Source: Acetonema longum DSM 6540
GTDB taxonomy: Bacteria; Bacillota; Negativicutes; Sporomusales; Acetonemataceae
NCBI RefSeq assembly: GCF_000219125.1
Contig: NZ_AFGF01000015.1
Coordinates: 1 to 64,000, forward strand
Length of the DNA: 64,000 nucleotides
Reading direction: 5' to 3'
The position numbers were made by a program, and so were the translations under genes. Below are positions 12,827-27,115 of the stretch, one piece after another. Under the pieces are notes generated by a model, which was not told the origin of the DNA, searched no databases, and saw only the letters and a list, made by a program, of their open reading frames with translations. The first letter of the stretch is position 1, and the number at the start of each line of letters is the position of its first letter.

Positions 12827-14530
12827 GTGGGAAACTACCAAAAAGTTACGCCTAAGGCGCCTGTGAATATTGCGATGCGGCATGCGTACCTGATTGGGGG
12901 AGGTATTGCCGGTTTGTCGGCGGCGGCATTCCTGATCCGGGATGCTCATATGCCCGGGAGAAATATTCATGTGTTGGAGATGTTGGAGGTTGCAGGAGGC
13001 TCAATGGATGGCGCCGGTACGGCTGAAACCGGTTATACCGCCCGGGGCGGACGTGAAATAGAGGAGCATTTTGAATGCTTTATGGAGCTTTTTGGTTTTA
13101 TTCCGTCACTCAATGATCCAACCCGGAGCGTGCTGGATGAATTTCGCGAATTAAATCTGGCAGAGCCCATTGAGTCTCACTGCCGGCTGGTGAGCAACCA
13201 GGGGCAAAAGGAGGATTCTTCCAGCCTTGGTCTTTCTCACAGCAATGCCCTGGAGTTGGCAAGGCTGCACATGCTAACCGAAGAGAAGCTTGGCGCCACG
13301 ACCATTGAGCAGTATTTCAGCCCCAGCTTCTTTGAAACGAATTTCTGGTACTTCTGGACCACCATGTTTGCCTTTCAGAGGTGGCACAGCGCAGCCGAAG
13401 TTAAACGGTATATGGAACGGTTCATGCACCTGATCGGCGGCATGAACCGGCTGATCGGAATTCTGCATACCGAATACAATCAATACGATTCGCTGATTTT
13501 GCCTCTGATCACCTGGCTGCAGCAGCAGGGTGTAAACTTCGAGTATGGGGCTGCTGTCACAGACATTGGGTTTAATTTTTTCGGCTACGAAAAGACAGCC
13601 ACATCCATCCGTTACGTTCAAAACGGCAAAGAGGAGGTCATTCAGATAAAGGAAGATGACCTGGTGCTGTTTACCAATGGTTCAATGACCCAAAATACCG
13701 TAAGAGGCAATCTCGACCATCCCGCTGCTCTAAATCGTTCCCAGGACAGGGGATGTTTTTCTCTATGGGAGAAAATCGCCCGCAAGTCTTCCAGCTTCGG
13801 ACGACCGGAAGTATTTTGCACTGATATTGACAAGACGAAATGGGTGTCCTTCACAATCACTCTCAGGGATGACGGCATCGTATTTCCCCGCCTTCTGGCC
13901 CTCACTGGCGATAAGCCGGGGATGGGCGGGCTTGTGACCATTAAAGATTCCAATTGGCTTATGAGCTGGGTGGTTCCGAAGCAGCCTCATTTCATCAATC
14001 AGCCGGATAATGTCAAAGTCCTTTGGGCGTACGCCTTGAATCTGGATGTGGAGGGAAACTATATTCAAAAATCCATTTCCCAGTGCACCGGACGGGAAAT
14101 GTTTGAAGAACTGCTCTATCATATGGGGCTAAAAGATAAAATTGCTGAGATTTTGCTCCACACGGTCAATGTCATTCCCAGTATGATGCCTTATATCACC
14201 TCCCAGTTTATGCCGCGAGTTACCGGCGACCGGCCGGCGGTCATTCCCACAGGCAGTAAAAATTTTGGCTTCATTGGGCAGTTTACGGAAATTCCCCACG
14301 ACTGCGTCTTTACGGTGGAATATTCCGTGCGCAGCGCCATGATAGCGGTATACGGCCTGATGGCGCTGAACAAGGTGGTAGATCCGGTATATCCCAGCCA
14401 ATATGATATCCGCGTTCTGGCCAATGCGGCCAAGGCTTGCCTGAATATGGACAAGATCCCGTTACATGACATTCCTTTGGGGAAATTGCTGCAGGGTACG
14501 GAACTTGAGATGTTGCTTCTTATGTCCTAG
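12827..14530 (+). CDS. ohyA: Oleate hydratase (MCRA family)
   Basis: 567 residues from GTG 12827 (GGAAAGGAAG upstream). FAD-dependent hydratase that adds water to the cis-9 double bond of unsaturated fatty acids, giving 10-hydroxy acids. Family marks: dinucleotide motif YLIGGGIAGLSAAAFL, VLEMLEVAGGSMDGAG, ARGGREIEEHFECFMELFG, and NFWYFWTTMFAFQRWHSA. No signal peptide; it is likely cytosolic and membrane-associated. It may detoxify fatty acids. It stands alone, divergent from the MFS leader. Confidence 0.93.
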   Translation: MGNYQKVTPKAPVNIAMRHAYLIGGGIAGLSAAAFLIRDAHMPGRNIHVLEMLEVAGGSMDGAGTAETGYTARGGREIEEHFECFMELFGFIPSLNDPTRSVLDEFRELNLAEPIESHCRLVSNQGQKEDSSSLGLSHSNALELARLHMLTEEKLGATTIEQYFSPSFFETNFWYFWTTMFAFQRWHSAAEVKRYMERFMHLIGGMNRLIGILHTEYNQYDSLILPLITWLQQQGVNFEYGAAVTDIGFNFFGYEKTATSIRYVQNGKEEVIQIKEDDLVLFTNGSMTQNTVRGNLDHPAALNRSQDRGCFSLWEKIARKSSSFGRPEVFCTDIDKTKWVSFTITLRDDGIVFPRLLALTGDKPGMGGLVTIKDSNWLMSWVVPKQPHFINQPDNVKVLWAYALNLDVEGNYIQKSISQCTGREMFEELLYHMGLKDKIAEILLHTVNVIPSMMPYITSQFMPRVTGDRPAVIPTGSKNFGFIGQFTEIPHDCVFTVEYSVRSAMIAVYGLMALNKVVDPVYPSQYDIRVLANAAKACLNMDKIPLHDIPLGKLLQGTELEMLLLMS

Positions 14531-14650: not shown

Positions 14651-14686
14651 AGGTGGACAGCTTTTTAAAGCTGTTCATCTTTTTTT
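14651..14686 (+). terminator. Terminator hairpin in the metQ leader
   Basis: A 14-bp stem (AGGTGGACAGCTTT / AAAGCTGTTCATCT, with G-U pairs) followed by seven T. It could simply end the ohyA transcript. However, it lies downstream of the predicted metQ promoter, so it could also attenuate metQ. No SAM riboswitch or T-box fits in the short leader. Confidence 0.7.
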
Positions 14687-14720
14687 GTTGCCTTCCATAC
14701 TAAAAAATAGGGGGATTGCA

Positions 14721-15524
14721 TTGAAAAAGTTAGCTGCCTTATTCCTGATTCTGTTTGCTGTAGCGGCCGTTGGCTGCGGTTCCACCGAAAGTCCCAACCA
14801 AGAGGAAAAAATCCTCAAAGTCGGCGTCACTTCCGGACCCCATGCGGAAATCCTGGAGCAGGTGAAAAAAGTGGCGGAACGGGACGGGCTTAAAATCCAG
14901 ATCGTTGAATTCAACGACTACGTGCAGCCCAACGCGGCTCTCGATCAGGGAGATATCGACGCCAACGCCTTTCAGCACCAGCCCTTCCTGAATAATCATG
15001 TGAAAGACCGGGGCTACAAACTGGTGTCTATCGCTAAAACGGTGATCCTGCCTATGGGCATCTATTCCGACAAGGTGCAGAAAGTGGATGAGTTGAAAGA
15101 CGGAGCATCCGTCGCTATCCCCAATGACCCGTCCAACGCTGGCAGGGCGCTGCTGCTCCTGGATCAGGCCGGGCTCATCAAACTGAAACCGGGAGCAGGA
15201 GCCGCGGCAACGGTTCTGGATATCGTGGAGAATCCCAAAAACCTGAAGATTAAAGAGCTGGAGGCAGCGCTGATTCCGCGGGCGATCGCGGATATGGATA
15301 TCGCCGCCATCAATACCAGCTACGCAGTCAAAGCGGGACTGGTGCCTACCCGGGACGGACTGGCCCTGGAAAACGCCAGTTCACCCTATACCAATGTGTT
15401 AGTGGTCCGGGAAAAAGACAAGGATAATCCTGCGTTCCAGAAGCTGATCAAAGCATACCATTCCGAGGATGTTAAACAATATCTGTCCGGTCACTTCGAC
15501 GGTTCGATCCTGGCGACCTGGTAA
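14721..15524 (+). CDS. metQ: Methionine-binding lipoprotein (MetQ/NlpA family)
   Basis: 267 residues from TTG 14721, which follows AGGGGG by 6 bases. The signal peptide ends in a lipobox (VAAVGCGST), so it is a membrane-anchored ABC solute-binding protein. Family motifs: KVGVTSGPHAEILE, VEFNDYVQPNAALDQGDIDAN and FQHQPFLN. Members bind methionine and related compounds for the MetNI permease. No metN or metI is next to it, so the partner permease must be elsewhere. Confidence 0.9.
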   Translation: MKKLAALFLILFAVAAVGCGSTESPNQEEKILKVGVTSGPHAEILEQVKKVAERDGLKIQIVEFNDYVQPNAALDQGDIDANAFQHQPFLNNHVKDRGYKLVSIAKTVILPMGIYSDKVQKVDELKDGASVAIPNDPSNAGRALLLLDQAGLIKLKPGAGAAATVLDIVENPKNLKIKELEAALIPRAIADMDIAAINTSYAVKAGLVPTRDGLALENASSPYTNVLVVREKDKDNPAFQKLIKAYHSEDVKQYLSGHFDGSILATW

Positions 15525-15649: not shown

Positions 15650-16201
15650 ATGAAACGGATTTGGGTTGACCGGGAAAAATGTCTGGGCTGCAAATCCTGT
15701 GAACTGCAGTGTGCGATAGAGCGCGATTCTGTCAGCAGGACCCTGCTTGGTTCTGTCCGGGAAACCCCGCTGCCGGCTGCCCGGGTAGGAGTTTTCGGCA
15801 CCACGGGCCGAAGCTTTCCCCTGCAGTGCCGCCACTGCCAGGATGCCGCCTGTATCAGAGCCTGCCCTGCCGGCGCTATGCGCCGGGATGAAGCGACTGA
15901 GGCGGTATTCGTTGAGCGGGAAAAATGCCGGGGGTGCTGGATGTGTGTCATGGCCTGCCCGTTTGGGGCGATTATTCCCCATAGCGCTTACAAGGTGGCG
16001 GTCAAGTGCGACGCCTGTATGCACATGGAAGAACTGGCCTGTGTCAGCGCCTGTCCCACCGGTGCGCTCAGCCAGGGTGATGCCGGAGATTTTCAAAAAG
16101 TGCTGCTGGCCAAACGGGGGCGCTTGGTGCTGTTTGCCTTGGAAAATCCCGGTGCGGGCAAAGTAGCCCTTGAATTCACAGGAAAGGATGACAAGCCATG
16201 A
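15650..16201 (+). CDS. cooF: CooF-like four-cluster ferredoxin
   Basis: 183 residues with four sets of cysteines fitting [4Fe-4S] clusters: CLGCKSCELQC, CRHCQDAACIRAC, CRGCWMCVMAC and CDACMHMEELACVSAC. This is the CooF/HycB-type electron-transfer subunit that takes electrons from CO dehydrogenase. GGGGAGGGAG precedes ATG 15650. Its stop overlaps the next start (ATGA), so it is coupled to the mini-CODH gene and is presumably its redox partner. Confidence 0.9.
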   Translation: MKRIWVDREKCLGCKSCELQCAIERDSVSRTLLGSVRETPLPAARVGVFGTTGRSFPLQCRHCQDAACIRACPAGAMRRDEATEAVFVEREKCRGCWMCVMACPFGAIIPHSAYKVAVKCDACMHMEELACVSACPTGALSQGDAGDFQKVLLAKRGRLVLFALENPGAGKVALEFTGKDDKP

Positions 16202-17646
16202 AAGATGTACACAAAAAATCCCTGGACGCGGCTGTCAACCAGGTGCTGCTGACCGCACACCGCAGCCGGATGCCGCTGGTCTGGGACCGGGCCGAAGCCA
16301 TGCAGCCCCAGTGCGGTTTTGGCCGGCTGTCTATCTGCTGTACCGACTGTCAGGAGGGACCTTGCCGAACGAATCCCTTTGGGGCGGAAACTCAGCAAAC
16401 CGTATGCGGCCGGGATCAATACGACCTGGCAGCCGGGAGCTTCCTGCGCAAGGCCGCGGACGGCGCTCTGGCGCTGACCAAACTGGCGGCCCAGGCGGGG
16501 CAAAGCTTCAGTGAACAGGCCGTCCGGGACCTGGCGATATCGAACGATGAAATGCTGGCCTTCGAGTCTGCCGGGCTGCGGCTGGCTGCCATCGGGCGCC
16601 ATACGAATGCGGCGCTGGGAGCCATCTGTCAAAGCCGCCGGACGGCGGGTGACACCGGACTGCCTGATGTTGTCGGCGTGAATATAGGCGTCCTGCACTC
16701 TGATTCGGTGAACATTGTGCTCCACGGACATGTGGACGGAACCTTCGCCGCAGGGCTCCGGGCCGCTGCCCTGGACGGGGGTGTCCCCGTCAGTTTCAGC
16801 GGTATGTGCGGCAATGAGCTCAACGGCGGTCTGAGATTGCCGCTGTTGACCAACTATGATTCCCAGGAAGCGCCGCTGTTAACCGGCCTGGTTGATTTGC
16901 TGGTCATCGGCGAACAATGCGTCATGCCGGCTGTCATTAAACTGGCCGGCAGCCGGGGAATCCCGGTGGTAAGGGCGGCAGATGCTTCATTGACGGCGGA
17001 TTATGCCGGGGCTGTCCGCACGGCCCGTCAGTCCTTCCAGCGCAGATCCGGCTTGGAAACAGCCGCTCCGGCGGTCAGAAGCGCCGCCTGCATAGGATTT
17101 ACCATTGATAATAGCACCGATCTGTTCCGGAGCGTAACTGAACAGTTCCGTCTTGGAAACCTGCGTGGTGTCGTGTATCTGGGTGGCTGCGGCACAGTGG
17201 CGAATACCCAGGATGCCCGGCCGGTCAGCCTGGCTGCCGCCCTGGTCGATGCGGGCTATTTGGTGATAACCGCCGGCTGTGCCGGAACCGCCCTGGCGAA
17301 GGCGGGAATGTGCCGCCCCGGCTGGGACAACGGCAGCTATGCGCTGCGCCGTGTTCTGCCACCTGATACGCCGCCGGTGCTGCACATCGGCTCCTGCCAT
17401 GATGCCGGTGAACTGCTTCGGATCGCCGCGGTGCTGCGGCAGGAAAATCTGCCAGTCTATGGGGTTTTCCCGGAGATAAACCATAATAAAGTTCTGGCAA
17501 CAGCCGCCGGATTTGCCGCAGCCGGCCTTCCCGCCTGGCTGGGATTTGACGTTATCCCGGACAATCTTGGCCGGGATAACGGTCTTTTGCCGTTACCGGA
17601 CACTGTGACGCTGCTGCAGGCTCTGGACCGGGGAACCGGCCAATGA
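16198..17646 (+). CDS. Shortened anaerobic CO dehydrogenase-like protein (mini-CooS)
   Basis: 482 residues; ordinary Ni-CODH catalytic subunits are about 630. The B/D-cluster cysteines are all present (C39, C47, C48, C51, C56, C70). Candidate C-cluster ligands are also present: the HGH at 176-178, C204 (GMCGNEL), C241 (GEQCVMP), C331 (GGCGTVANTQD), C361 (TAGCAGTALAKAG) and C400 (HIGSCHDAG). The active-site Lys appears as K431 (NHNK). Missing: about 85 residues of helical domain after C70, the His-rich proton-relay segment (AHSDH in CODH, ALALTKL here) and the usual C-terminal tail. Function unknown; CO chemistry, another small-molecule redox step, or sensing are possible. Confidence 0.8.
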   Translation: MKDVHKKSLDAAVNQVLLTAHRSRMPLVWDRAEAMQPQCGFGRLSICCTDCQEGPCRTNPFGAETQQTVCGRDQYDLAAGSFLRKAADGALALTKLAAQAGQSFSEQAVRDLAISNDEMLAFESAGLRLAAIGRHTNAALGAICQSRRTAGDTGLPDVVGVNIGVLHSDSVNIVLHGHVDGTFAAGLRAAALDGGVPVSFSGMCGNELNGGLRLPLLTNYDSQEAPLLTGLVDLLVIGEQCVMPAVIKLAGSRGIPVVRAADASLTADYAGAVRTARQSFQRRSGLETAAPAVRSAACIGFTIDNSTDLFRSVTEQFRLGNLRGVVYLGGCGTVANTQDARPVSLAAALVDAGYLVITAGCAGTALAKAGMCRPGWDNGSYALRRVLPPDTPPVLHIGSCHDAGELLRIAAVLRQENLPVYGVFPEINHNKVLATAAGFAAAGLPAWLGFDVIPDNLGRDNGLLPLPDTVTLLQALDRGTGQ

Positions 17647-18863
17647 GCCAGGGGAAGACGAAACCCGTGTGTGTGATCATCGGCCAAGGCGCGGCCGGCG
17701 CGGCGGCGGCCAATGAATTAAAACGGCTGGATAGTGATTCAGCCGTCATGATTGTCAGTAATGAACGAGAAGGTTTTTACAGCCGGATTGACTTGCCTGA
17801 TATCATCGGCGGGAGGCGCGAGGCTCGGGAGGCGCTGCTGCAGAGGCCCGGTCAGTTTCAGGAAAAGGGCATTGATTGCGTGGCCGGCGAGCCAGCGGTA
17901 CGGATCTGCCCGGGTGACCGCAGTGTTGAATTGTCCTCCGGCCGGCGGCTGCATTACGACAGGCTGCTGCTGGCTACCGGCGCCCGTCCGGTTGTTCCCC
18001 GGCTGCCGGGCATGAACGCGGACGGGGTATTCGCCCTATGGACTTTGGCCCAGGCCGAGGCGATTTCCCAGGCTGCCACCGCAGCCAGGGCCGCCGTTGT
18101 GATCGGAGCGGGGCTGATCGGTCTGAAAACCGCGCTGGCCCTCCGCAAGCGGGGGCTGCGCGTGACTGTCGTCGAACGTATGGACCGGGTGCTGCCGCAG
18201 CAGCTCGATGCCGCGGCAGCGGCGATCCTGGAAGCGGCCGTCAGGGCCGGAGGCGTGGAACTGCTCACCTCTGTTCAGGTAAACGCGGTGGAAACCAGCG
18301 GCGGCAGGGTGACAGGCATCAGAACCGGTTCACGGCAACTGCCTTGCGAACTGGTAATCTGCGCTGCCGGCGTCAAGCCGGAGACCGCTCTTGCTGAGAC
18401 AGCAGACCTGGCGCTGGGAGCCGGCATTGTCACCGATGCCTGTCTCAGGACGTCGCAGGACGATGTTTATGCCGCAGGGGATGCCGCGGAAGTAGCGGAT
18501 ATCCGGGGCCAGCGGACGACATCGGCCGGCTGGCCGGCTGCGGTGGAACAGGGGATCATCGCTGCCCGCAACATGGCAGGCGGTCAGGAGCAGTATGCCG
18601 GCTATGTAGCCGCCAACAGCGTGGAAATCGCCGGAGTGCCGCTGGTGTCAGCGGGCTATATGCAGAATGGCTCTGAGGCTGAAATCCTGGTTCAGCAGGA
18701 CGGAAACGCATACCGCAGGCTGATAGTGAAAAACAATCGGCTCCAGGGGTTTGTGCTGATGGGGGATATCCGTCAGTCGGGAGTGCTGGCCGGCGTCCTT
18801 GCCCGCCAGGATGTCCTCCGGCCGGGCAAGGCTTTGGATTATATTGAACTGCTGGCATTGTGA
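17643..18863 (+). CDS. FAD/NAD(P)-dependent oxidoreductase of the mini-CODH operon
   Basis: 406 residues with two dinucleotide-binding motifs: the FAD site VIIGQGAAGAAAANEL near the N-terminus and the NAD(P)H site VVIGAGLIGLKTALALRKRG in the middle. DDVYAAGDAAEV closes the FAD domain. It resembles the NAD(P)H-rubredoxin/nitrite reductase-like 'FNOR' found beside some CODH genes. It probably transfers electrons between the CooF-type ferredoxin and NAD(P). ATGA overlap with the preceding stop shows tight coupling. Confidence 0.87.
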   Translation: MSQGKTKPVCVIIGQGAAGAAAANELKRLDSDSAVMIVSNEREGFYSRIDLPDIIGGRREAREALLQRPGQFQEKGIDCVAGEPAVRICPGDRSVELSSGRRLHYDRLLLATGARPVVPRLPGMNADGVFALWTLAQAEAISQAATAARAAVVIGAGLIGLKTALALRKRGLRVTVVERMDRVLPQQLDAAAAAILEAAVRAGGVELLTSVQVNAVETSGGRVTGIRTGSRQLPCELVICAAGVKPETALAETADLALGAGIVTDACLRTSQDDVYAAGDAAEVADIRGQRTTSAGWPAAVEQGIIAARNMAGGQEQYAGYVAANSVEIAGVPLVSAGYMQNGSEAEILVQQDGNAYRRLIVKNNRLQGFVLMGDIRQSGVLAGVLARQDVLRPGKALDYIELLAL

Positions 18864-18874
18864 GGAGGGATGTT

Positions 18875-19615
18875 ATGCGCATTGATAAAAACAAATGCGC
18901 CGGCTGCGGCCAGTGCACTGAGTTCTGCACCTTGGGCAATATTGCGGCCAGGCGGCGTGATCCCCACACGGGGAAATTATATTACGAGATTGACGAAGAC
19001 GAATGCGTGGACTGCGGGGTCTGTCTGAGGGCGGCGGTCTGCTCCGCCGGAGCCCTGTTTATGCCGCAGTACGAATGGCCCCGCACCGTACGTTCCGCCT
19101 TCAGCGATCCGACAGTCGAGCACCGGGAGACCAAGGTGCCGGGGCGGGGGACGGAAGAGATCAAAACCAATGAAGTGACCGGACGGATCAGACGCGGCTT
19201 TGCGGGCATTTCCTGCGAAATGGGACGCCCCAGTGTCGGCGCCCGGTTCCGGGATATCGAGAAAGTGGCTGTCGCCCTGGCCGGACTGGGGGTGGAATTT
19301 GAGCCGAATAATCCCTGCACCCGGCTGATGGCTGACCCCCACACCGGTATTTATAAAGAAGAGGTCAGAAACGAGAAGGTTCTTTCCGCGATTATCGAAA
19401 TGATCGTTCCCATAGAAAAGACGGCCGAAATCCTGGCCGCCATCCGCCGGGTGTCCGGCGAGGTCGACTGTGTATTCTGCGTCGACCTGATCACCGTGCT
19501 GGAAGAGGACAATACAGTGCCGACCCTGCCGATTCTGCGGGAGCTGAACTGGCCGTTCCGGCCCAACGGAAAAATGAATACCGGTCTGGGCAGGCCGCTG
19601 GCCAAGGAGGGGTAA
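18875..19615 (+). CDS. Ferredoxin-domain protein with uncharacterised C-terminal domain
   Basis: 246 residues from ATG 18875 (GAGGAGGG 5 bases upstream; the longer frame from GTG 18860 has no SD). Two cluster motifs occupy residues 1-65: CAGCGQCTEFC and CVDCGVCLRAAVC, the second with unusual spacing. The C-terminal 150 residues contain alternating alpha/beta segments (FRDIEKVAVALAGLGVEFE, KVLSAIIEMIVPIEKTAEIL) and two further cysteines in VDCVFCVD. I do not recognise that domain. The operon context suggests an electron or cofactor role with the mini-CODH. Confidence 0.75.
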   Translation: MRIDKNKCAGCGQCTEFCTLGNIAARRRDPHTGKLYYEIDEDECVDCGVCLRAAVCSAGALFMPQYEWPRTVRSAFSDPTVEHRETKVPGRGTEEIKTNEVTGRIRRGFAGISCEMGRPSVGARFRDIEKVAVALAGLGVEFEPNNPCTRLMADPHTGIYKEEVRNEKVLSAIIEMIVPIEKTAEILAAIRRVSGEVDCVFCVDLITVLEEDNTVPTLPILRELNWPFRPNGKMNTGLGRPLAKEG

Positions 19616-19618
19616 GCC

Positions 19619-20257
19619 ATGTCTCATACATTGCACCGACAGGGTACGCCGGAAAACCTGGCCCATGATTTTCCCATGCACGCCATGCCGGCCCGGGGCT
19701 TTAATCATGAGGACGCCAGGCCCAAGCTGCAGAAGTTTTTGCAGATCGCTCACGGACACAATCCGGTGAATCTGGGCGATGTCAAGCTCGGCAACCAATA
19801 TGTGACGGATTACGGGGAATTGTATGACAAGCTGACGATCAGCAGCACCCATGCTGTCCTGGCCAATGAGGAAGACCTGACGGCGCTGCTGGCGGAGGTG
19901 AAGCAGGTCGAGCTGGGCATGTCGCTCACGATTTCCGGCCTGTTTGAAAAACTCTTTGCCTGCTGCGCCCGGGCGGGGGTCCAGCCGCACGCTGTGGAAC
20001 ATTCCCTGGGGGTGCTGGGCCAAACGGACAAGATGCCGGAAGAGGAGATCTCCCAGGTGACCACGATGTGCGGGCACGGCATGGTAGCGCAGGGCCTGGT
20101 GCGCCGGCTGGTCCGCCAGGTGAAAAAAGGGAAGATGACACCTCAGGAAGCGGGTATCGAACTGGCAAAACCATGCCGCTGCGGGATCTTCAACCCGGCC
20201 CGGGCAGCGGCGCTGATTGACGAGTACTGCGCCTTGTTTAGCGTTACGGTGAAATAA
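19619..20257 (+). CDS. Uncharacterised Cys-rich protein of the mini-CODH operon
   Basis: 212 residues, family not recognised. The C-terminal half holds conserved-looking Cys/His motifs: FEKLFACCARAG, TTMCGHGMVAQGLVRRLV and KPCRCGIFNPARAAALIDEY. These could bind a metal or Fe-S cluster. Soluble, no signal peptide. AAGGAGGGG precedes ATG, 4 bases after the previous stop. As the last gene of the operon, it might be a subunit or a maturation factor; this is inference. Confidence 0.7.
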   Translation: MSHTLHRQGTPENLAHDFPMHAMPARGFNHEDARPKLQKFLQIAHGHNPVNLGDVKLGNQYVTDYGELYDKLTISSTHAVLANEEDLTALLAEVKQVELGMSLTISGLFEKLFACCARAGVQPHAVEHSLGVLGQTDKMPEEEISQVTTMCGHGMVAQGLVRRLVRQVKKGKMTPQEAGIELAKPCRCGIFNPARAAALIDEYCALFSVTVK

Positions 20258-20311: not shown

Positions 20312-20341
20312 AATGCCCGGAACTTCAGGGTTCCGGGCATT
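20312..20341 (+). terminator. Terminator of the mini-CODH operon
   Basis: AATGCCCGGAAC pairs perfectly with GTTCCGGGCATT. The tail is only weakly T-rich. Confidence 0.8.
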
Positions 20342-21189: not shown

Positions 21190-21840
21190 TTACTGAATTT
21201 GAAAATATACCCGCATTTTATCGAAAGAGCGTTTTTTATGATGATACATTAATCGTTCCATAGCTGCAGGATTTCTTTCCTTAACATATTGGAGCATTTG
21301 CTGATGCTCTTTGTGTGAATCCTGGAGGATCTCGGGAAAAATCTGAAAAACCATCCGCATTCTTTTTTCTGATTCCATTAAATCACTGATAGTTTGAATT
21401 AGAAGCTGATTGCCGCTTGCCTCAATAATAAGACGATGAAACGCTTTATTAAGCTCACCGTATCTTTGTATATCGTTGTCGGCCAGCGCCTGGCTGGCTT
21501 CGGCATACTTCTCCTCCAGCTTCTGAATTAGGCTGTCGTCAGCATTTTGCACCGCAAGTTCCGCGGCAAAAGTCTCCAAGCATTCACGCATTTCCAGCAT
21601 GTCCTTAATATTTTGGGGTGAAAAGCTTGCCACCCGTGAACCGACATGCGGAATGGTCTCCACCAGTCCCTCCGCTCGCAATTCCTTTAAGGCCTCCCGT
21701 ACGGGAATATCACTGAGTCCATATTCTGTTGCAATTTGCTTAATCACTAAATGACTGCCCGGGGGAAACTCTCCCTCCAGAATCTTTCGCTTAATTTCAT
21801 TATAAATTGAAGCAGATTTGGTTATTGGCGCAATCGACAT
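21190..21840 (-). CDS. GntR-family regulator with FCD domain
   Basis: 216 residues. The winged HTH (about 10-75) has GEFPPGSHLVIKQIATEYGL and VPHVGS-type wing; the C-terminal FCD helical bundle (85-210) has the metal-binding pattern of FadR/VanR-type sensors (MRECLETFAAELA, FHRLIIEASGN, HKEHQQML). ATG 21840 fits GAGGTG 9 bases upstream better than GTG 21852. It sits at the downstream end of the catabolic cluster; AT-rich palindromes upstream of it and of the first catabolic gene suggest it represses both. Effector likely an organic acid (inferred). Confidence 0.9.
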   Translation of the reverse strand: MSIAPITKSASIYNEIKRKILEGEFPPGSHLVIKQIATEYGLSDIPVREALKELRAEGLVETIPHVGSRVASFSPQNIKDMLEMRECLETFAAELAVQNADDSLIQKLEEKYAEASQALADNDIQRYGELNKAFHRLIIEASGNQLLIQTISDLMESEKRMRMVFQIFPEILQDSHKEHQQMLQYVKERNPAAMERLMYHHKKRSFDKMRVYFQIQ

Positions 21841-21906
21841 TACATTCCACACCTCAAAACTATTCCTCAGCTGTTGGGTCCCATTATAACGATTGTTTCA
21901 AACTCG

Positions 21907-21932
21907 ATATTCTATATCCTATATAGGATATA
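21907..21932. promoter_or_regulatory. Putative GntR operator upstream of gntR
   Basis: A 20-bp perfect palindrome, TATATCCTATATAGGATATA (21913-21932). The 18 bases from 21907 match 28500-28517 at 17 positions. Confidence 0.65.
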
Positions 21933-22002
21933 ACATGCTACAAATATTGTCAATATTGAAGGACTAGGTTCTGCATCAGTGGAAATTCTGCCGATTACTT
22001 AT

Positions 22003-22956
22003 TTAGCGAACCGAATGCAGGGGAGCAAGCCCCTGCAGCACTCTCGCGACCTCCTCTGCAGCTATCAAACCGGCCCGCTCGGAAGCTTCCAGCGTGCTGG
22101 CGCCGATGTGGGGCGTCAGAATTACATTGGACAACCCGAATAAACAACTCCGTTCAAGCGGCTCGCTAATAAAGGCATCCAGCCCGGCTCCGGCAAGCCT
22201 GCCGCACCGCAGAGCATCGCTCAAATCTTCTTCAACTACCAAATCCCCTCTCGCCGTATTGATCAGGAAAGCCGTCGGCTTCATAAGCGCCAGCGTCTGC
22301 CGGTTGATCATGCTGACCGTTTCCGGCAGCGCCGGCGCGTGCAGCGATAAAAAGTCGGCCTGGGCCAAAACCTGCTCCAGCGGCAGGTAGACAACGCCGC
22401 AAGCTTCCGTCAGTTCCAGGCGGGGATATATATCATAGGCAATAATCTTCATATCAAACGATTGGGCCCGCTTCATTACTTCCCGTCCGACATTGCCCGT
22501 TCCCACAATACCAAGCGTCTTGCCTCCCAGCTCCCCGCCTATGCTTTTCTCCCATACTCCTGTATGCAGCTTGCCGCTCAACCGGGGAATGGAGCGTACC
22601 AGAGCGAGCATTAACCCCAGCGTTAGGTCAGCTACCGACTTGCTGTTGGCGCCCGGCGTATTGGTTACCGCAACTCCATGCCGGTGCGCTGCCGTCAGGT
22701 CAATCGTATTATACCCCACCCCGCTGCGGGCGATAATTCTCAATTCAGGGACACTGGCGGTAATAACGGAATCAGTTATTTCGTCGTTGCCGGCCACAAT
22801 AGCGGCGCAACCCGGCAGCAATGCCAGCAGTTCTTTTTCCTTAAGCGCCCGTTCCACCTGGCTCAAGACAAGCTCGCAGCCGCTTTCTTGCAAAAACTTT
22901 ACCGCCGCCTCTGACCGCCGGAAAGACAGGGCGGAAACTAAAACCTTTTTGTTCAT
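22003..22956 (-). CDS. D-2-hydroxyacid dehydrogenase (SerA-like)
   Basis: 317 residues, NAD-dependent D-isomer-specific 2-hydroxyacid dehydrogenase without the ACT domain of biosynthetic SerA. NAD site LGIVGTGNVGREVMKRAQ (about 146-163), GVGYNTIDL, TPGANSKSVADLTLGLMLAL, the catalytic Arg in INTARGDLV, and ILTPHIGASTLEA with the catalytic His. ATG 22956 follows GGGGAG. It probably oxidises or reduces an intermediate of the pathway encoded upstream; the substrate cannot be assigned. Confidence 0.9.
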   Translation of the reverse strand: MNKKVLVSALSFRRSEAAVKFLQESGCELVLSQVERALKEKELLALLPGCAAIVAGNDEITDSVITASVPELRIIARSGVGYNTIDLTAAHRHGVAVTNTPGANSKSVADLTLGLMLALVRSIPRLSGKLHTGVWEKSIGGELGGKTLGIVGTGNVGREVMKRAQSFDMKIIAYDIYPRLELTEACGVVYLPLEQVLAQADFLSLHAPALPETVSMINRQTLALMKPTAFLINTARGDLVVEEDLSDALRCGRLAGAGLDAFISEPLERSCLFGLSNVILTPHIGASTLEASERAGLIAAEEVARVLQGLAPLHSVR

Positions 22957-22973
22957 GCTATGCACTCCCCTGC

Positions 22974-23011
22974 AAAAAACCCCACAACTCGCGAAAGTTT
23001 GTGGGGTTTTT
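22974..23011 (-). terminator. Terminator between the fumarase beta-like gene and the dehydrogenase gene
   Basis: AAAAACCCCACAA pairs with TTGTGGGGTTTTT. It would reduce read-through into the dehydrogenase gene, setting a lower level for the downstream part of the cluster. Confidence 0.7.
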
Positions 23012-23020
23012 GCCAATTGT

Positions 23021-23599
23021 TTATAAAGCTTCGATGATTTTAAGGGCCTGCTCTTTTATATCCTGATAGATGCTGTTGCCATGCGAGTCCATTGTCACCG
23101 CCAACGGACCAAACCTTTCCGCATGCAGCACCCAAAGCGCCTCCGGCATGCCCTTCTCCAGCCAGAACCCGCCCTCTACCTTGTTCACAGCGGCGGCCAG
23201 CTTGACCGCGCAGCCGGGAGCAGCCTGCAGATAGACTTGTTTATACTTCTTAAAGGCCTTGATGCTGCCTTCGCGCATGCCGCCTTTACCGATGACGGCT
23301 TTGACGCCAAGCTGCCCTACCATTTCCGCATATGGCTCCATGCGCATGCTGGTCGTTGGACCGATGACAATTAATTCCCAGTCCTCATCAATCTTTTTAA
23401 CAACGGGTCCTGCATGAAAAATAGCGCTTCCGGTAAAGTCAACTGGCAGGGCTTTGCCGGCTTCGAGGCTTTTCTTGATTTCCAGATGTCCCATATCGCG
23501 TGAGGTGAAGATGACACCAGTCAAATATACGGTATCACCGTTTTTCAACGTTTCAACATCCTGATCTGACAACGGTAATGTTAATTCGTAAACAGCCAC
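23021..23599 (-). CDS. Class I hydro-lyase beta subunit (FumA-C/TtdB type)
   Basis: 192 residues, the swivelling C-terminal domain of two-subunit class I fumarases and L-tartrate dehydratases. Conserved GPTTSMRMEPY and GKGGM active-site segments are present, as are FTSRDMGH and AIFHAGPVV. It works with the alpha subunit encoded directly upstream (3 bases apart). Substrate could be fumarate/malate, tartrate, or a methylated dicarboxylate. Confidence 0.9.
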   Translation of the reverse strand: MAVYELTLPLSDQDVETLKNGDTVYLTGVIFTSRDMGHLEIKKSLEAGKALPVDFTGSAIFHAGPVVKKIDEDWELIVIGPTTSMRMEPYAEMVGQLGVKAVIGKGGMREGSIKAFKKYKQVYLQAAPGCAVKLAAAVNKVEGGFWLEKGMPEALWVLHAERFGPLAVTMDSHGNSIYQDIKEQALKIIEAL

Positions 23600-23601
23600 G
23601 G

Positions 23602-24495
23602 CTAGGCCTCCTTCCCAAACAGATATTCACGGCGCCCGTCCCGGTACAAGCGAACGCCAAACCGCCGGGCCACCCAGCAGTGAAAATTGATCGCGACCGG
23701 ACAAATGGCCGTATGAGTGGCCGCCATGCCGATTTTTACCGCCAGACAGGTCGTGCTGCCGCCAATACCGGCAGGCCCCACGCCAAGCTTATTGATGGTT
23801 TCCAGCAGTTCCTGCTCCAGCTGCTTCAGCTGTGGATCAGGGTTCTCATCCCGCCAGTCCCGCGTACTGATCGCTTCCCGGCTCAGTTTGGCTGCCACGT
23901 CCATCTGGCCACCGATACCGATGCCGATTGCAGAAGGGGGGCAGGGCATGCCGCCGGCATTAACCACCGTCTCATATACCAGCTTCTTCAATCCTTTTAA
24001 GTCACTGCCCAGTTGAGCCGTTGTCATGGTTTTGTAGATATTGCCCAGTTCAGCGCCGCACCCTTTAAAACTGACAATCAATTCGATGTATTCCTGACCG
24101 GGGATATACTGGTATTCAATGTTGGGAACACCATCACCCGAGTTGTTTCCCGGGTTCGACCGGTTCAGCGAATGCACGATGCTGGGCCGGGCGTAACCGT
24201 TGCCGGTTGCTTCCACCATTGCCTTCGGCAGGTATTTTCGCAAAAGTTCAACACCTTCAGTACTGCCGAACCGGATATACACCGTCGGAAAGCCCGGCGA
24301 CTGACAAACAGGCTTAGTCTGCTCGTCCGCCATAGCCACATTTTCCAGCATAGCAGAAAGCATAGCCCTGGCCCCGGCGCTTTCTTCCTTTGCCAATGCC
24401 TCTTTCATAATTTCAAGACTGTCTTCCGATACATGGGTGCAGCTTCTTTTAATCCATTCGTAGACTTCTTCATAAGTTATAGTAAAAGCTCCCAT
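23602..24495 (-). CDS. Class I hydro-lyase alpha subunit with altered CQD motif
   Basis: 297 residues, Fe-S catalytic subunit of a class I fumarase/tartrate dehydratase-like enzyme. Three cluster cysteines are visible: CQSPG (first), FKGCGAELGN and GGSTTCLAVKIG. The first motif is normally CQDTG; its Asp, reported as a catalytic residue in class I fumarase, is Ser here. AIGIGIGGQMDVA is normal. The change suggests either a different substrate or a relocated acid/base. It pairs with the beta subunit gene downstream. Confidence 0.87.
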   Translation of the reverse strand: MGAFTITYEEVYEWIKRSCTHVSEDSLEIMKEALAKEESAGARAMLSAMLENVAMADEQTKPVCQSPGFPTVYIRFGSTEGVELLRKYLPKAMVEATGNGYARPSIVHSLNRSNPGNNSGDGVPNIEYQYIPGQEYIELIVSFKGCGAELGNIYKTMTTAQLGSDLKGLKKLVYETVVNAGGMPCPPSAIGIGIGGQMDVAAKLSREAISTRDWRDENPDPQLKQLEQELLETINKLGVGPAGIGGSTTCLAVKIGMAATHTAICPVAINFHCWVARRFGVRLYRDGRREYLFGKEA

Positions 24496-24531
24496 TATTC
24501 TTACCTCCCTGCCAATCCCGATTTCGCTATC

Positions 24532-25722
24532 TTATTTCACCGTTTCCTTATCAGATGCGTCAATGGTTTCATCGGTCAATTCCTGGCCGATACCGGGAAG
24601 ATCAGGGATCTCATACATGCCATCTTTGGGCAAATAGTTGTATTTGCAGGTATTCGTATTTGCTTCCAGCAGTGCATACCGGTGCAGTTCATGGATGGCG
24701 AAATTGGGAATGGCGCATTCCAAATGCAGTGAAGCTGCCGTCATGATCGGGCCGCCGCAGACGTGGATTTGTGCGGTCATATCGTAGATATGCGCCATAT
24801 CACAGATTTTTTTGCCTTCCGTAATTCCGCCGCAGGTGCCCAAATCCGGCTGAATAACTGTCAGTGATCCGTCTTCAAAGAAGGGGCGGAAGCCCCAGCG
24901 GGTGTAAACGCGTTCTCCCGCGGCGATCGGAATGTTGACATTATCCGCAACCTGCTTCATTTGCTTGGGATTGAGGGGCATAACCGGTTCCTCGTAAAAG
25001 AAAATATCCAGTTCTTCAATCATTTTGCCGAACTTAATAGCGGCGGCCGTATCGGTAAGAGCATGCGCCTCGACAATGATATCCACATCGGGGCCCATGG
25101 CTTCGCGCATAGCTTTCAGGCGCTCATAACCGAGACGAAGCGTTTTAGTGGAAAGCACCCCGCAAAGATTTTGTTTCTTAATATTGCCGAAACCATCCAT
25201 TTCGTTTACATCCACTTTAATAGCGTCATAACCATCGGCAACAGCCTGAAGCGCAACTTCCGCATACTGCTTCGGCTCTACGAGAATGGATTTCGCCTTG
25301 GCGGTACCCCAGCCGAACTGTAACTGACTCGCATAGGTTCTTACCTTATCCCGGCACTTACCGCCCAGAAGCTGGTACACGGGAACATTAAGAGCTTTTC
25401 CTTTAATATCCCACAAAGCAATATCAATTGCGCTCATGCCTGCCGATACAACCGTGCCGCCGCCCTGCCCCCAGAACGTTTTCTTCTGCATCTTGTCCCA
25501 AATAGCTTCGTTTTGCATGGGATCCATACCAATAATGAGCTTGGCCAAATCCTTTGCCATGCCAAAACCGGCGGAAGCGCCCACACCATAGGCCATGCCC
25601 ACTTCACCGAAGCCATGAATCCCTTCGTCGGTATTAATACGGACAACTATTGGCCGCCACTTGCTGGTCGATGACTGGAGATCATTTGCCACATCAATAA
25701 TATCCACGCTTACAATTTTCAT
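24532..25722 (-). CDS. Enolase-superfamily acid-sugar dehydratase-like protein (MR/MLE)
   Basis: 396 residues, mandelate racemase/muconate lactonizing enzyme group. N-terminal capping domain followed by the barrel with SAIDIALWDIKGKAL, a Lys in AIKVDV, metal ligands in IIVEAHAL, FYEEPVMP and AAGERVYTRWGF, and a C-terminal HVCGGPIMTAAS in place of the usual PHNPLGPI. The His-Asn-Pro to Val-Cys-Gly change is notable. ATG 25722 follows AAGGGGGAAG. Probably dehydrates a hydroxylated dicarboxylate brought in by the adjacent transporter (inference). Confidence 0.85.
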   Translation of the reverse strand: MKIVSVDIIDVANDLQSSTSKWRPIVVRINTDEGIHGFGEVGMAYGVGASAGFGMAKDLAKLIIGMDPMQNEAIWDKMQKKTFWGQGGGTVVSAGMSAIDIALWDIKGKALNVPVYQLLGGKCRDKVRTYASQLQFGWGTAKAKSILVEPKQYAEVALQAVADGYDAIKVDVNEMDGFGNIKKQNLCGVLSTKTLRLGYERLKAMREAMGPDVDIIVEAHALTDTAAAIKFGKMIEELDIFFYEEPVMPLNPKQMKQVADNVNIPIAAGERVYTRWGFRPFFEDGSLTVIQPDLGTCGGITEGKKICDMAHIYDMTAQIHVCGGPIMTAASLHLECAIPNFAIHELHRYALLEANTNTCKYNYLPKDGMYEIPDLPGIGQELTDETIDASDKETVK

Positions 25723-25741
25723 TTTTCTTCCCCCTTGTTTT

Positions 25742-27115
25742 TTATAGGAATAGTACAAACATTGAAATTATATGAGCGATAAGTCCCAGCGTAACCGGAA
25801 TGGCCACGCGTTTGGACACATCAAACGGCGATACACCCGCAATGCTTGAAATGGCGACTATCGCCGCCGTTATCGGCGACATGCAGCGTCCAAAACCGGA
25901 GGTAAGCTCCATAGGCAGCAAAATAAGCACCGGATTGACATTTAAGTGGGCGGCTATTTTGGGCGCCAGACCGGCAAAAGCGAAGAAACTTGCATTTCCG
26001 GAACCCATGATAAAGGAACAGACAACCATGATAAAACTGATAATAACCACTGTCGCCTGCAGCCCGAGACCGGCTGACTGCGCCCCCTGAATCAAAGCAT
26101 CTACCGCTCCGACTTTTACCAAACCCATGGCGAATGTTTCCGCACAGATAATCAGTGATACAACGGCAACAAATTGTTTACCCATGCCGTCAAAAAAAGT
26201 CATGATATTATCCATAACCGGGCGTATATCGCGCAGCCTTACAAATTCAAATACCATCGAAACAATGGTGGAAATCAGCATGGCTGTAATAACATCCATT
26301 TTAATGGATTTAATAAACAGCGGTGAGAAGATGATCACCAGAAACAGCGGCAATGTTGGCAGAAAAGCGTAAATTACCGGCGCTTTTTCCTTTTCAGCTT
26401 CCTTGACCGCATTCTCCTTGGCCAAATCCTGAACTGCGGCGAACCCTTCGCGTTTATCCCAATAAGGCTGAACAAAATAATGAGCAAGGCCAACCACAAA
26501 AATAGGTACGATTACTACAGGCAGTTGGTATTGCAGGAAATAAGTGACCGGATCAAGTCCGGCGGTATGCGCCGCCAGAATCGCATTGGAGGAAATAGGG
26601 CCGATATCGGTAAACTTCGCGGTGGCAATCACGGCCACTGCGGTCAATTTACTGATTCCTGCATTGACCATAATCGGATACACTGTCAACATAAGCAGTA
26701 ATCCCAGTCCGGCATGACTTGGCACAAAAATATCGACAAGATGCCCAATAACATAGGCAACAAGCATGACGATCATCGGCGATTTCACCCATTTAAGCGG
26801 CGCAGCTGACAATTCCACAAGCGCCTGGTTGGCGCCGCATTGCTCCATGTAGCGTACAAAACCGCCGATGGACATAATCGTCAGGCCCAGCCCGGCCAGA
26901 CGGCTGCTCATAAGTTGTTTGACCGCCTCAAAGATATCAAACCAGATGACACCGGTGGATTGTTTGGCCGACAAAATGGTTCCTGTACCAAATACGGCAG
27001 TACAAATCATTAGTATAATGCCGGCTCCCAGCAATACACCCTGCGGTTTGTACTTCTTGTAGAGCATGTAACCTACCCATCCCGTAACAATCGCACCAAT
27101 TAGCAATCCTAACAT
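25742..27115 (-). CDS. dcuC: C4-dicarboxylate transporter, DcuC family
   Basis: 457 residues with about 12 membrane segments and the family segment VCSFIMGSGNASFFAFAG. DcuC proteins are anaerobic C4-dicarboxylate carriers working by uptake, antiport or efflux. The neighbours (two dehydratases, a dehydrogenase and an MmgE/PrpD protein) imply uptake of a dicarboxylic acid substrate. It lies 18 bases from the upstream gene, in the same operon. Confidence 0.88.
   Translation of the reverse strand: MLGLLIGAIVTGWVGYMLYKKYKPQGVLLGAGIILMICTAVFGTGTILSAKQSTGVIWFDIFEAVKQLMSSRLAGLGLTIMSIGGFVRYMEQCGANQALVELSAAPLKWVKSPMIVMLVAYVIGHLVDIFVPSHAGLGLLLMLTVYPIMVNAGISKLTAVAVIATAKFTDIGPISSNAILAAHTAGLDPVTYFLQYQLPVVIVPIFVVGLAHYFVQPYWDKREGFAAVQDLAKENAVKEAEKEKAPVIYAFLPTLPLFLVIIFSPLFIKSIKMDVITAMLISTIVSMVFEFVRLRDIRPVMDNIMTFFDGMGKQFVAVVSLIICAETFAMGLVKVGAVDALIQGAQSAGLGLQATVVIISFIMVVCSFIMGSGNASFFAFAGLAPKIAAHLNVNPVLILLPMELTSGFGRCMSPITAAIVAISSIAGVSPFDVSKRVAIPVTLGLIAHIISMFVLFL

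What the first reader, a model, noticed from the sequence alone, without database searches (positions are those of the whole stretch)
15650..20257. Mini-CODH operon: all metal ligands, no proton-relay histidines
The 482-residue protein keeps the B/D-cluster cysteines at the same positions as in well-studied Ni-CODH and keeps candidates for each C-cluster ligand and the active-site Lys. But about 85 residues of helical domain, the His-rich segment and the C-terminal tail are gone. It is coupled by ATGA overlaps to a CooF-type ferredoxin and a flavoprotein, and followed by two proteins I cannot assign (Fe-S/new domain, and a Cys-rich CGHGM/PCRCG protein). Short CooS-like proteins have been noted before in surveys of CODH genes, but as far as I know their reaction is not established. 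The two extra genes may define a distinct system.
Basis: partly seen in the sequence, partly recalled or inferred. Interest (0 to 1): 0.8.

Follow-up and report, generated by a model that had tools for sequence, protein, structure and literature searches.

The report
Mini-CODH wired to organic-acid enzyme
A shortened relative of carbon monoxide dehydrogenase is always encoded beside an unstudied two-protein iron-sulfur enzyme, and in most relatives it has lost its metal active site but kept its electron-carrying cluster, so it probably carries electrons for another reaction instead of burning CO.

Summary
In detail: a 482-aa CooS-like protein keeps every D-, B- and C-cluster ligand and Lys563, lacks the His93 relay and about 84 residues of helical domain, and sits between CooF- and FNOR-type genes and two unassigned genes. 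'Mini-CooS' itself is already named (Techtmann 2012; clade G in 2022). New here: (1) The last two genes (ORF4, ORF5) are a fixed pair. In searches made with mini-CooS, 10 of 10 full-length loci (9 genomes) have the pair in the same cluster, in three gene orders. (2) The pair is a widespread family of its own (550 hits in 85,000 species genomes), usually beside organic-acid transporters and regulators. Where mini-CooS is absent, CooF and FNOR are absent too (0 of 71 loci). (3) Of 32 mini-CooS proteins examined, all keep the four B-cluster cysteines, but 21 have lost the C-cluster site and Lys563, and one keeps only its five cysteines. The C-cluster is therefore dispensable. Best reading: CooF/mini-CooS/FNOR is a CODH-derived electron-transfer unit for an ORF4-ORF5 oxidoreductase acting on an imported organic acid, not primarily a CO dehydrogenase. 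Substrate, electron direction and activity of the window's C-cluster remain open.

The parts
14685..15524 (+). NlpA/MetQ-family substrate-binding lipoprotein, probable first gene of the operon in the window's own sub-clade
   Evidence: PF03180 E 1e-98; same family directly upstream of cooF in L094, L096, L109; gap of 125 bp to cooF
15650..16201 (+). CooF-type polyferredoxin
   Evidence: Fer4_11 and related models; best NCBIfam kin AegA/HydN/DmsB-type; present in 28 of 29 mini-CooS loci and 0 of 71 pair-only loci
16198..17646 (+). mini-CooS, 482 aa, full-ligand type: D (C39,C47), B (C48,C51,C56,C70), C (H178,C204,C241,C331,C361,C400), K431; no His relay
17643..18863 (+). FNOR-type FAD/NAD(P)H oxidoreductase (PadH/NirB-N/NorW kin)
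   Evidence: Pyr_redox_2 E 1e-58; NCBIfam PadH 244 bits, under its cut-off
18875..19615 (+). ORF4: 2x[4Fe-4S] ferredoxin domain plus unassigned C-terminal domain (GRGTEExKTN ... GRP ... GLGRPL); electron-input half of the pair
   Evidence: Fer4_7; 8 Cys in 96-98% of 106 homologues; inserted in a GltD-like flavoprotein in L181, L190; ATG 18875 with GGAGGG
19619..20257 (+). ORF5: 212-aa protein of an unnamed family (HxLHR ... CGH ... CxCG); probable catalytic half with a 3-Cys cluster
   Evidence: No curated family match; invariant H3 H6 C151 H153 C186 C188 in 20 sequences; 550 relatives
20312..20341 (+). Hairpin after ORF5 (13 pairs, weak T tail), possible end of transcript
   Evidence: pattern match only

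Best explanation
The five genes encode one oxidoreductase assembly. ORF4-ORF5 is the enzyme proper: ORF4 brings electrons in or out through two [4Fe-4S] clusters, and its C-terminal domain together with ORF5 (three invariant Cys, several invariant His) forms the site that acts on an imported organic acid. FNOR exchanges electrons with NAD(P)H, CooF wires it, and mini-CooS serves as a CODH-derived relay subunit through its B-cluster (in the window perhaps also D and C). In the window the C-cluster can probably still assemble, but without the proton relay it is at best a poor CO dehydrogenase, and it is not what the module is conserved for. Shown: gene order, conservation, co-occurrence, ligand inventory, CODH fold of the model, fusion of ORF4 to an NAD(P)H flavoprotein in relatives. 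Inferred: physical complex, electron path, type of substrate. Not known: substrate, direction, role of the remaining C-cluster.
For: Mini-CooS found without reference to the pair always has the pair in the same cluster: 7 loci among 120 relatives and 3 more in a 398-genome phylum sample (pair places), while the pair occurs in only 26 of those 398 genomes. Three gene orders: CooF-mCooS-FNOR-ORF4-ORF5, ORF4-ORF5-CooF-mCooS-FNOR, CooF-mCooS-ORF4-ORF5-FNOR, so linkage survives rearrangement. CooF and FNOR travel with mini-CooS (28/29 and 26/29; at least two of the misses lie at contig ends) and are absent from 71 pair-only loci. B-cluster Cys kept in 32 of 32 mini-CooS, C-cluster site absent in 21 and partial in one. 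Invariant positions across both kinds cluster in the B-cluster segment. Mini-CooS is one clade against canonical CODHs, support 100. ORF4 is built into a GltD-like flavoprotein in L181 and L190. Pairs sit beside TctABC, TRAP, CitMHS/MatC transporters, PrpR-type and CitAB-like regulators, Zn-ADH, Ldh_2. The ORF4-ORF5 joined model is compact (pLDDT 89, pTM 0.89).
Against: All six C-cluster ligands and the Lys are kept in 10 of 10 full-ligand homologues, which implies selection for a cluster there in that branch. No interaction or activity data exist. The empty-site proteins are 20-26% identical to the window's protein and may have changed role. Pair-only loci show that the pair works without mini-CooS, so the trio may be an alternative electron source instead of a core part. 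The fold of ORF4-C/ORF5 has no confident solved match, so 'oxidoreductase' rests on the ferredoxin domain and the flavoprotein fusions. No substrate is identified.
Confidence: 0.55

Rival explanations
1. In the full-ligand branch mini-CooS is a working, slow Ni-CODH: CO supplies low-potential electrons through CooF to ORF4-ORF5 or to FNOR/NAD(P)+ (a CODH/FNOR module coupled to a reductase).
For: All six C-cluster ligands, Lys563 and the D/B clusters are kept in 10 of 10; CooF and FNOR are the usual partners of clade C CODHs (PMC6344411, PMC13056359); the type case comes from the CO oxidiser Thermosinus (PMC8776680).
Against: His93 and the other relay His are lost in all ten; 21 of 32 relatives in the same module have no C-site; no cooC was recognised beside the gene; neighbours speak for organic acids.
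Confidence: 0.15
2. The remaining cluster is an Fe/S/O cluster, as in CooS-V, that reduces or senses small nitrogen or oxygen species and protects the oxygen-sensitive ORF4-ORF5 enzyme.
For: CODH scaffolds without CO activity exist: CooS-V does not oxidise CO and slowly reduces hydroxylamine (PMC9311411).
Against: CooS-V and HCPs carry Glu at the Cys295 position and Glu two residues before Lys; the window has Cys204 and His429 as in CODHs. The site is lost in most module members.
Confidence: 0.08
3. The C-cluster in the full-ligand branch catalyses a step of the same organic-acid pathway, for example on a one-carbon product, while empty-site relatives use another substrate that does not need it.
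For: Clean split into full-ligand and empty-site branches, differing transporters (NlpA and Tct versus TRAP).
Against: No direct evidence; gene sets are otherwise the same.
Confidence: 0.12
4. ORF4-ORF5 is a split 6-hydroxynicotinate reductase (Hnr)-type reductase, and the module reduces an N-heterocyclic or other unsaturated acid (compatible with the best explanation; it names the reaction).
For: Some pair-only loci (L128, L134, L184, L186) hold an amidohydrolase and a 3-hydroxyisobutyrate-dehydrogenase-like gene, as expected after that step in Eubacterium barkeri (general knowledge); the N-terminal ferredoxin domain fits my recollection of Hnr.
Against: No Hnr sequence was available here, so homology is untested; no fused ORF4-ORF5 was seen; no mini-CooS locus has that amidohydrolase or dehydrogenase family; the amidohydrolase scores as prolidase-like.
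Confidence: 0.2

Closest known systems
mini-CooS / clade G Ni-CODH (Thermosinus carboxydivorans WP_007288589; PMC8776680, after Techtmann 2012)
   Same: Short CooS-like protein with complete metal-cluster motif; by description the window's protein is of this kind
   Different: Surveys classed it as a putative Ni-CODH and filter out sequences lacking cluster residues; here it is tied to ORF4-ORF5 and its clade includes proteins without a C-cluster. The Thermosinus sequence itself was not compared
CODH/FNOR operons (clade C CooS + CooF + FNOR; PMC6344411, PMC13056359)
   Same: CooF and FNOR as electron partners
   Different: Those encode full-length CODHs; no ORF4-ORF5 is named in the passages read
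Carboxydothermus CooS-V (clade D, PMC9311411)
   Same: CODH scaffold reused for other chemistry
   Different: CooS-V has Cys295 to Glu and an Fe/S/O cluster; the window keeps Cys, and its empty-site relatives lose every ligand
NADH-dependent phenylglyoxylate dehydrogenase electron subunits PadI/PadH
   Same: FNOR's best named kin by NCBIfam score is PadH; PadI is among CooF's kin
   Different: Scores far below the equivalog cut-offs; different catalytic partner
6-hydroxynicotinate reductase (Eubacterium barkeri; named in PMC3511419)
   Same: Possible similarity of ORF4-ORF5 in function and in some neighbours
   Different: Homology untested; single chain as I recall, split here

Membership tests
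Ni-CODH (CooS) | B-cluster (4 Cys) and D-cluster Cys | tested here: met
   C39, C47, C48, C51, C56, C70
Ni-CODH (CooS) | C-cluster ligands His261, Cys295, 333, 446, 476, 526 | tested here: met
   H178, C204, C241, C331, C361, C400; C204 lies next to a 2-residue deletion. Not met in 21 relatives of the same module
Ni-CODH (CooS) | acid-base Lys563 | tested here: met
   K431
Ni-CODH (CooS) | acid-base His93 and His relay | tested here: not met
   DGALALTKLAAQ in place of GGAAAHSDHGRH
Ni-CODH (CooS) | overall CODH fold | tested here: met
   model Z 32, about 455 residues aligned; model confidence moderate (pLDDT 76) and low around the B/D-cluster segment
Ni-CODH (CooS) | CO/CO2 interconversion | not testable with these tools
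   needs purified protein
mini-CooS / clade G | short CooS-like protein, complete metal motif, separate clade from canonical CODHs | tested here: met
   482 aa; clade support 100 against 10 canonical CODHs, which are from Bacillota only
mini-CooS / clade G | direct kinship with Thermosinus WP_007288589 or clade G OGP75751 | not tested
   sequences not held
HCP / CooS-V type | Glu in place of Cys295 and Glu two residues before Lys | tested here: not met
   C204 and H429
6-hydroxynicotinate reductase | sequence homology to E. barkeri Hnr | not testable with these tools
   no Hnr sequence available
6-hydroxynicotinate reductase | neighbouring enamidase-like and hydroxymethylglutarate-dehydrogenase-like genes | tested here: inconclusive
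   amidohydrolase and HIBADH families both present in L128, L134, L184, L186; neither in any mini-CooS locus

The most novel reading that the evidence does not exclude
ORF4-ORF5 founds a new class of Fe-S oxidoreductase for organic acids, and one branch recruited a CODH as its electron-delivery subunit. Within it the Ni-Fe site either took on a non-CO reaction (window branch) or was erased altogether, leaving a CODH scaffold that only carries electrons.
Probability: 0.3. Interest if true: 0.9.

Novelty: new variant of a known kind. Interest (0 to 1): 0.72.

Why it matters
Short CODH-like proteins are counted as putative CO dehydrogenases in genome and metagenome surveys. If this clade is an electron-transfer unit for organic-acid metabolism, those counts mislead, and CODHs gain a case of active-site loss with the electron-transfer cluster retained. 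It also brings forward a broad, unnamed iron-sulfur enzyme pair (550 hits in 85,000 species genomes, in Bacillota, Chloroflexi, Deltaproteobacteria, Nitrospirota and archaea) whose function can be tested in cultured species such as Anaerospora hongkongensis and Desulfosporosinus lacus.

Tried and rejected
Named families for ORF5: Pfam gave one sub-cut-off chance match (Astacin), NCBIfam none, PDB sequence search only chance matches; plasmids: none for ORF5, and for ORF4 only one hit to its ferredoxin part. Foldseek and VIA on the joined ORF4-ORF5 model hit only the ferredoxin domain, plus weak YkoF-like hits; since one domain filled the list, this does not show a new fold. Riboswitch upstream of the NlpA gene: none in Rfam. 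Papers on E. barkeri Hnr: no sequence details. Search for fused ORF4-ORF5 in 398 Bacillota genomes: none. Chance linkage rejected: 10 of 10 loci against 26 of 398 background genomes. Pseudogene explanation for the empty-site proteins rejected: intact frames in many lineages with all four B-cluster Cys kept. ORF4 and ORF5 were joined for folding by reading the in-frame TAA as Gly, a modelling device and not a claim of read-through.

Full report
OBSERVATION. The five ORFs are present as described. The 482-aa protein belongs to the Prismane/CODH family (E 3e-38) but scores 142 bits against a CODH equivalog cut-off of 478. Alignment to solved CODHs maps every ligand: D C39/C47, B C48/C51/C56/C70, C-cluster H178, C204, C241, C331, C361, C400, and Lys K431. 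C204 sits beside a two-residue deletion, so its match to Cys295 is likely but not certain. The segment that carries His93, 96, 99 and 102 in CODH-II has no His in the window or in nine further full-ligand homologues. About 84 residues of the helical domain are missing (query 95-152 against chain about 94-235). A predicted model (pLDDT 76, pTM 0.81; low confidence around the B/D-cluster segment and the C-terminus) matches CODHs at Z about 32 over about 455 residues and HCPs at Z 20-26.

CORRECTIONS. ORF4 has a better start at ATG 18875 behind GGAGGG, where its homologues start, so only two of the junctions are ATGA overlaps. A gene for an NlpA/MetQ lipoprotein lies 125 bp upstream and is conserved there in the three nearest relatives, so in this sub-clade the operon is probably six genes.

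CO-OCCURRENCE. Searches with mini-CooS alone found full-length homologues at seven loci in six genomes among 120 relatives and in three further genomes of a 398-genome phylum sample (loci fetched and read). All ten have ORF4 and ORF5 in the same cluster. The pair alone is in 14 of 120 and 26 of 398 genomes. The order varies: CooF-mCooS-FNOR-ORF4-ORF5 (window, L094, L096, L109), ORF4-ORF5-CooF-mCooS-FNOR (L095, L119, L125, and by coordinates L097, L104), CooF-mCooS-ORF4-ORF5-FNOR (L123, L130, L137 and others). A scan of 85,000 species genomes with ORF5 gave 550 relatives, of which the best 80 were read. Since those were found through ORF5 they are not counted as co-occurrence evidence; they show the breadth: Negativicutes, Desulfosporosinus and Peptococcaceae, Oscillospiraceae, Syntrophobacterales, Nitrospiraceae, Dehalococcoidia, Bathyarchaeota. 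In these sets CooF and FNOR occur with mini-CooS (28 and 26 of 29 loci; at least L178 and L179 end at a contig edge) and in none of 71 pair-only loci. The three genes thus travel as a unit that joins the pair.

TWO KINDS OF MINI-COOS. Of 32 proteins examined, all 32 keep the four B-cluster cysteines. Ten keep all six C-cluster ligands and the Lys. One (L202) keeps the five cysteines but not the His or Lys. Twenty-one have at most one potential ligand left at these positions and no Lys. Of nine empty-site proteins scanned, seven still pass Pfam's Prismane/CODH cut-off, L136 falls just under it and L162 well under it. Residues invariant across both kinds cluster in the B-cluster segment. Trees put all mini-CooS in one clade against ten canonical CODHs with support 100, the full-ligand kind in one clade (100), and the empty-site kind in one or two groups (one group in 70% of bootstrap trees and 17%), so the site was lost once or twice. 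The canonical CODHs used come from Bacillota only; clade G, archaeal CdhA and HCP were not in the tree. The ORF5 tree groups most mini-CooS-linked pairs but not all in one clade; the window's ORF5 group has a long branch of unsure place.

THE PAIR. ORF4 has eight ferredoxin cysteines (96-98% of 106 homologues) and a C-terminal domain rich in conserved charged residues (GRGTEExKTN, GRP, GLG). In L181 and L190 it is built into a GltD-like NAD(P)H flavoprotein, which marks it as an electron port. ORF5 has invariant H3, H6, C151, H153, C186, C188: three cysteines and several histidines, compatible with a [4Fe-4S] cluster with an open iron. This last step is inference. No curated family matches ORF5. 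The joined ORF4-ORF5 model is confident (pLDDT 89, pTM 0.89). Solved-structure matches cover only the ferredoxin domain, with weak YkoF-like hits elsewhere.

NEIGHBOURS. Pair-only loci: TctABC (26 of 71), TRAP (9), AFOR (12), PanB-like (9), PdxA-like (8), PrpR-type regulators (8), Ldh_2 (5), HIBADH-like (5), amidohydrolase (6). Mini-CooS loci: Tct (2), TRAP (5), Zn-ADH (8), PrpR-type (8), CitAB-like (4), NlpA (4) of 29. These are organic-acid catabolic settings, not CO settings. In the window itself the opposite strand just downstream (21190-27115) encodes a GntR/FCD regulator, a 2-hydroxyacid dehydrogenase, a two-part class I fumarase-like dehydratase, an enolase-superfamily enzyme and a DcuC-type carrier.

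MECHANISM. The constant feature of mini-CooS is the B-cluster, the constant partners are CooF, FNOR, ORF4 and ORF5, and the variable feature is the catalytic site of CODH. The simplest reading is that mini-CooS is a relay subunit between NAD(P)H/FNOR/CooF and the ORF4 ferredoxin domain, with the reaction at ORF4-C/ORF5. What the intact C-cluster does in the window's branch is open: slow CO oxidation, a small-molecule reaction, or an extra redox centre. The relay histidines, needed for normal CODH turnover (general knowledge), are gone.

KNOWN OR NEW. Mini-CooS was named by Techtmann 2012 and assigned to clade G in 2022 with complete cluster motifs (PMC8776680); a later survey lists it as mini-CODH (PMC11338639). 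Such surveys drop sequences with changes in cluster residues (PMC8776680, PMC11338639), which would explain why empty-site members were not reported; searches for such a report found none in the papers held. CooS-V (PMC9311411) is a precedent for a CODH scaffold without CO activity but differs at Cys295. The recent genomic-context study excluded clades G and H (PMC13056359). The link to ORF4-ORF5, the pair family itself and the loss of the C-cluster within the clade are, as far as these sources show, new. A link of the pair to 6-hydroxynicotinate reductase is a lead from neighbouring genes and memory, not a test.

Noticed in passing
window 21190-27115 (-): Next to the module: GntR/FCD regulator, D-2-hydroxyacid dehydrogenase, two-part class I fumarase-like dehydratase, enolase-superfamily enzyme and DcuC-type carrier, a likely sugar-acid or hydroxy-acid cluster.
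   Followed up: partly
L093 8140-9525 (G000:C87): The window's own genome holds a second, diverged ORF4-ORF5 pair without mini-CooS, beside a CitMHS transporter and a PAS-sigma54 regulator.
   Followed up: partly
L181 7387-9513; L190 7864-9987: ORF4 built together with a GltD-like flavoprotein, so that its ferredoxin part and its C-terminal domain flank the flavoprotein or are joined to it.
   Followed up: partly
L094 and L095 (G001:C16, G001:C25): One genome carries two mini-CooS modules with different gene order and different neighbours.
   Followed up: no
L112/L118 2538-5223: ORF5 groups with the full-ligand branch but the adjacent (contig-cut) mini-CooS is of the empty-site kind, suggesting exchange between modules.
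   Followed up: no
window 12827-14530 (+): Oleate hydratase gene (NCBIfam equivalog, 765 bits) upstream of the operon.
   Followed up: no
L147, L149, L153, L163, L185: Dehalococcoidia and Chloroflexi carry one or more ORF4-ORF5 pairs, often in tandem, beside genes such as AFOR, FAD-linked oxidase with CCG protein, or LarA-like.
   Followed up: no
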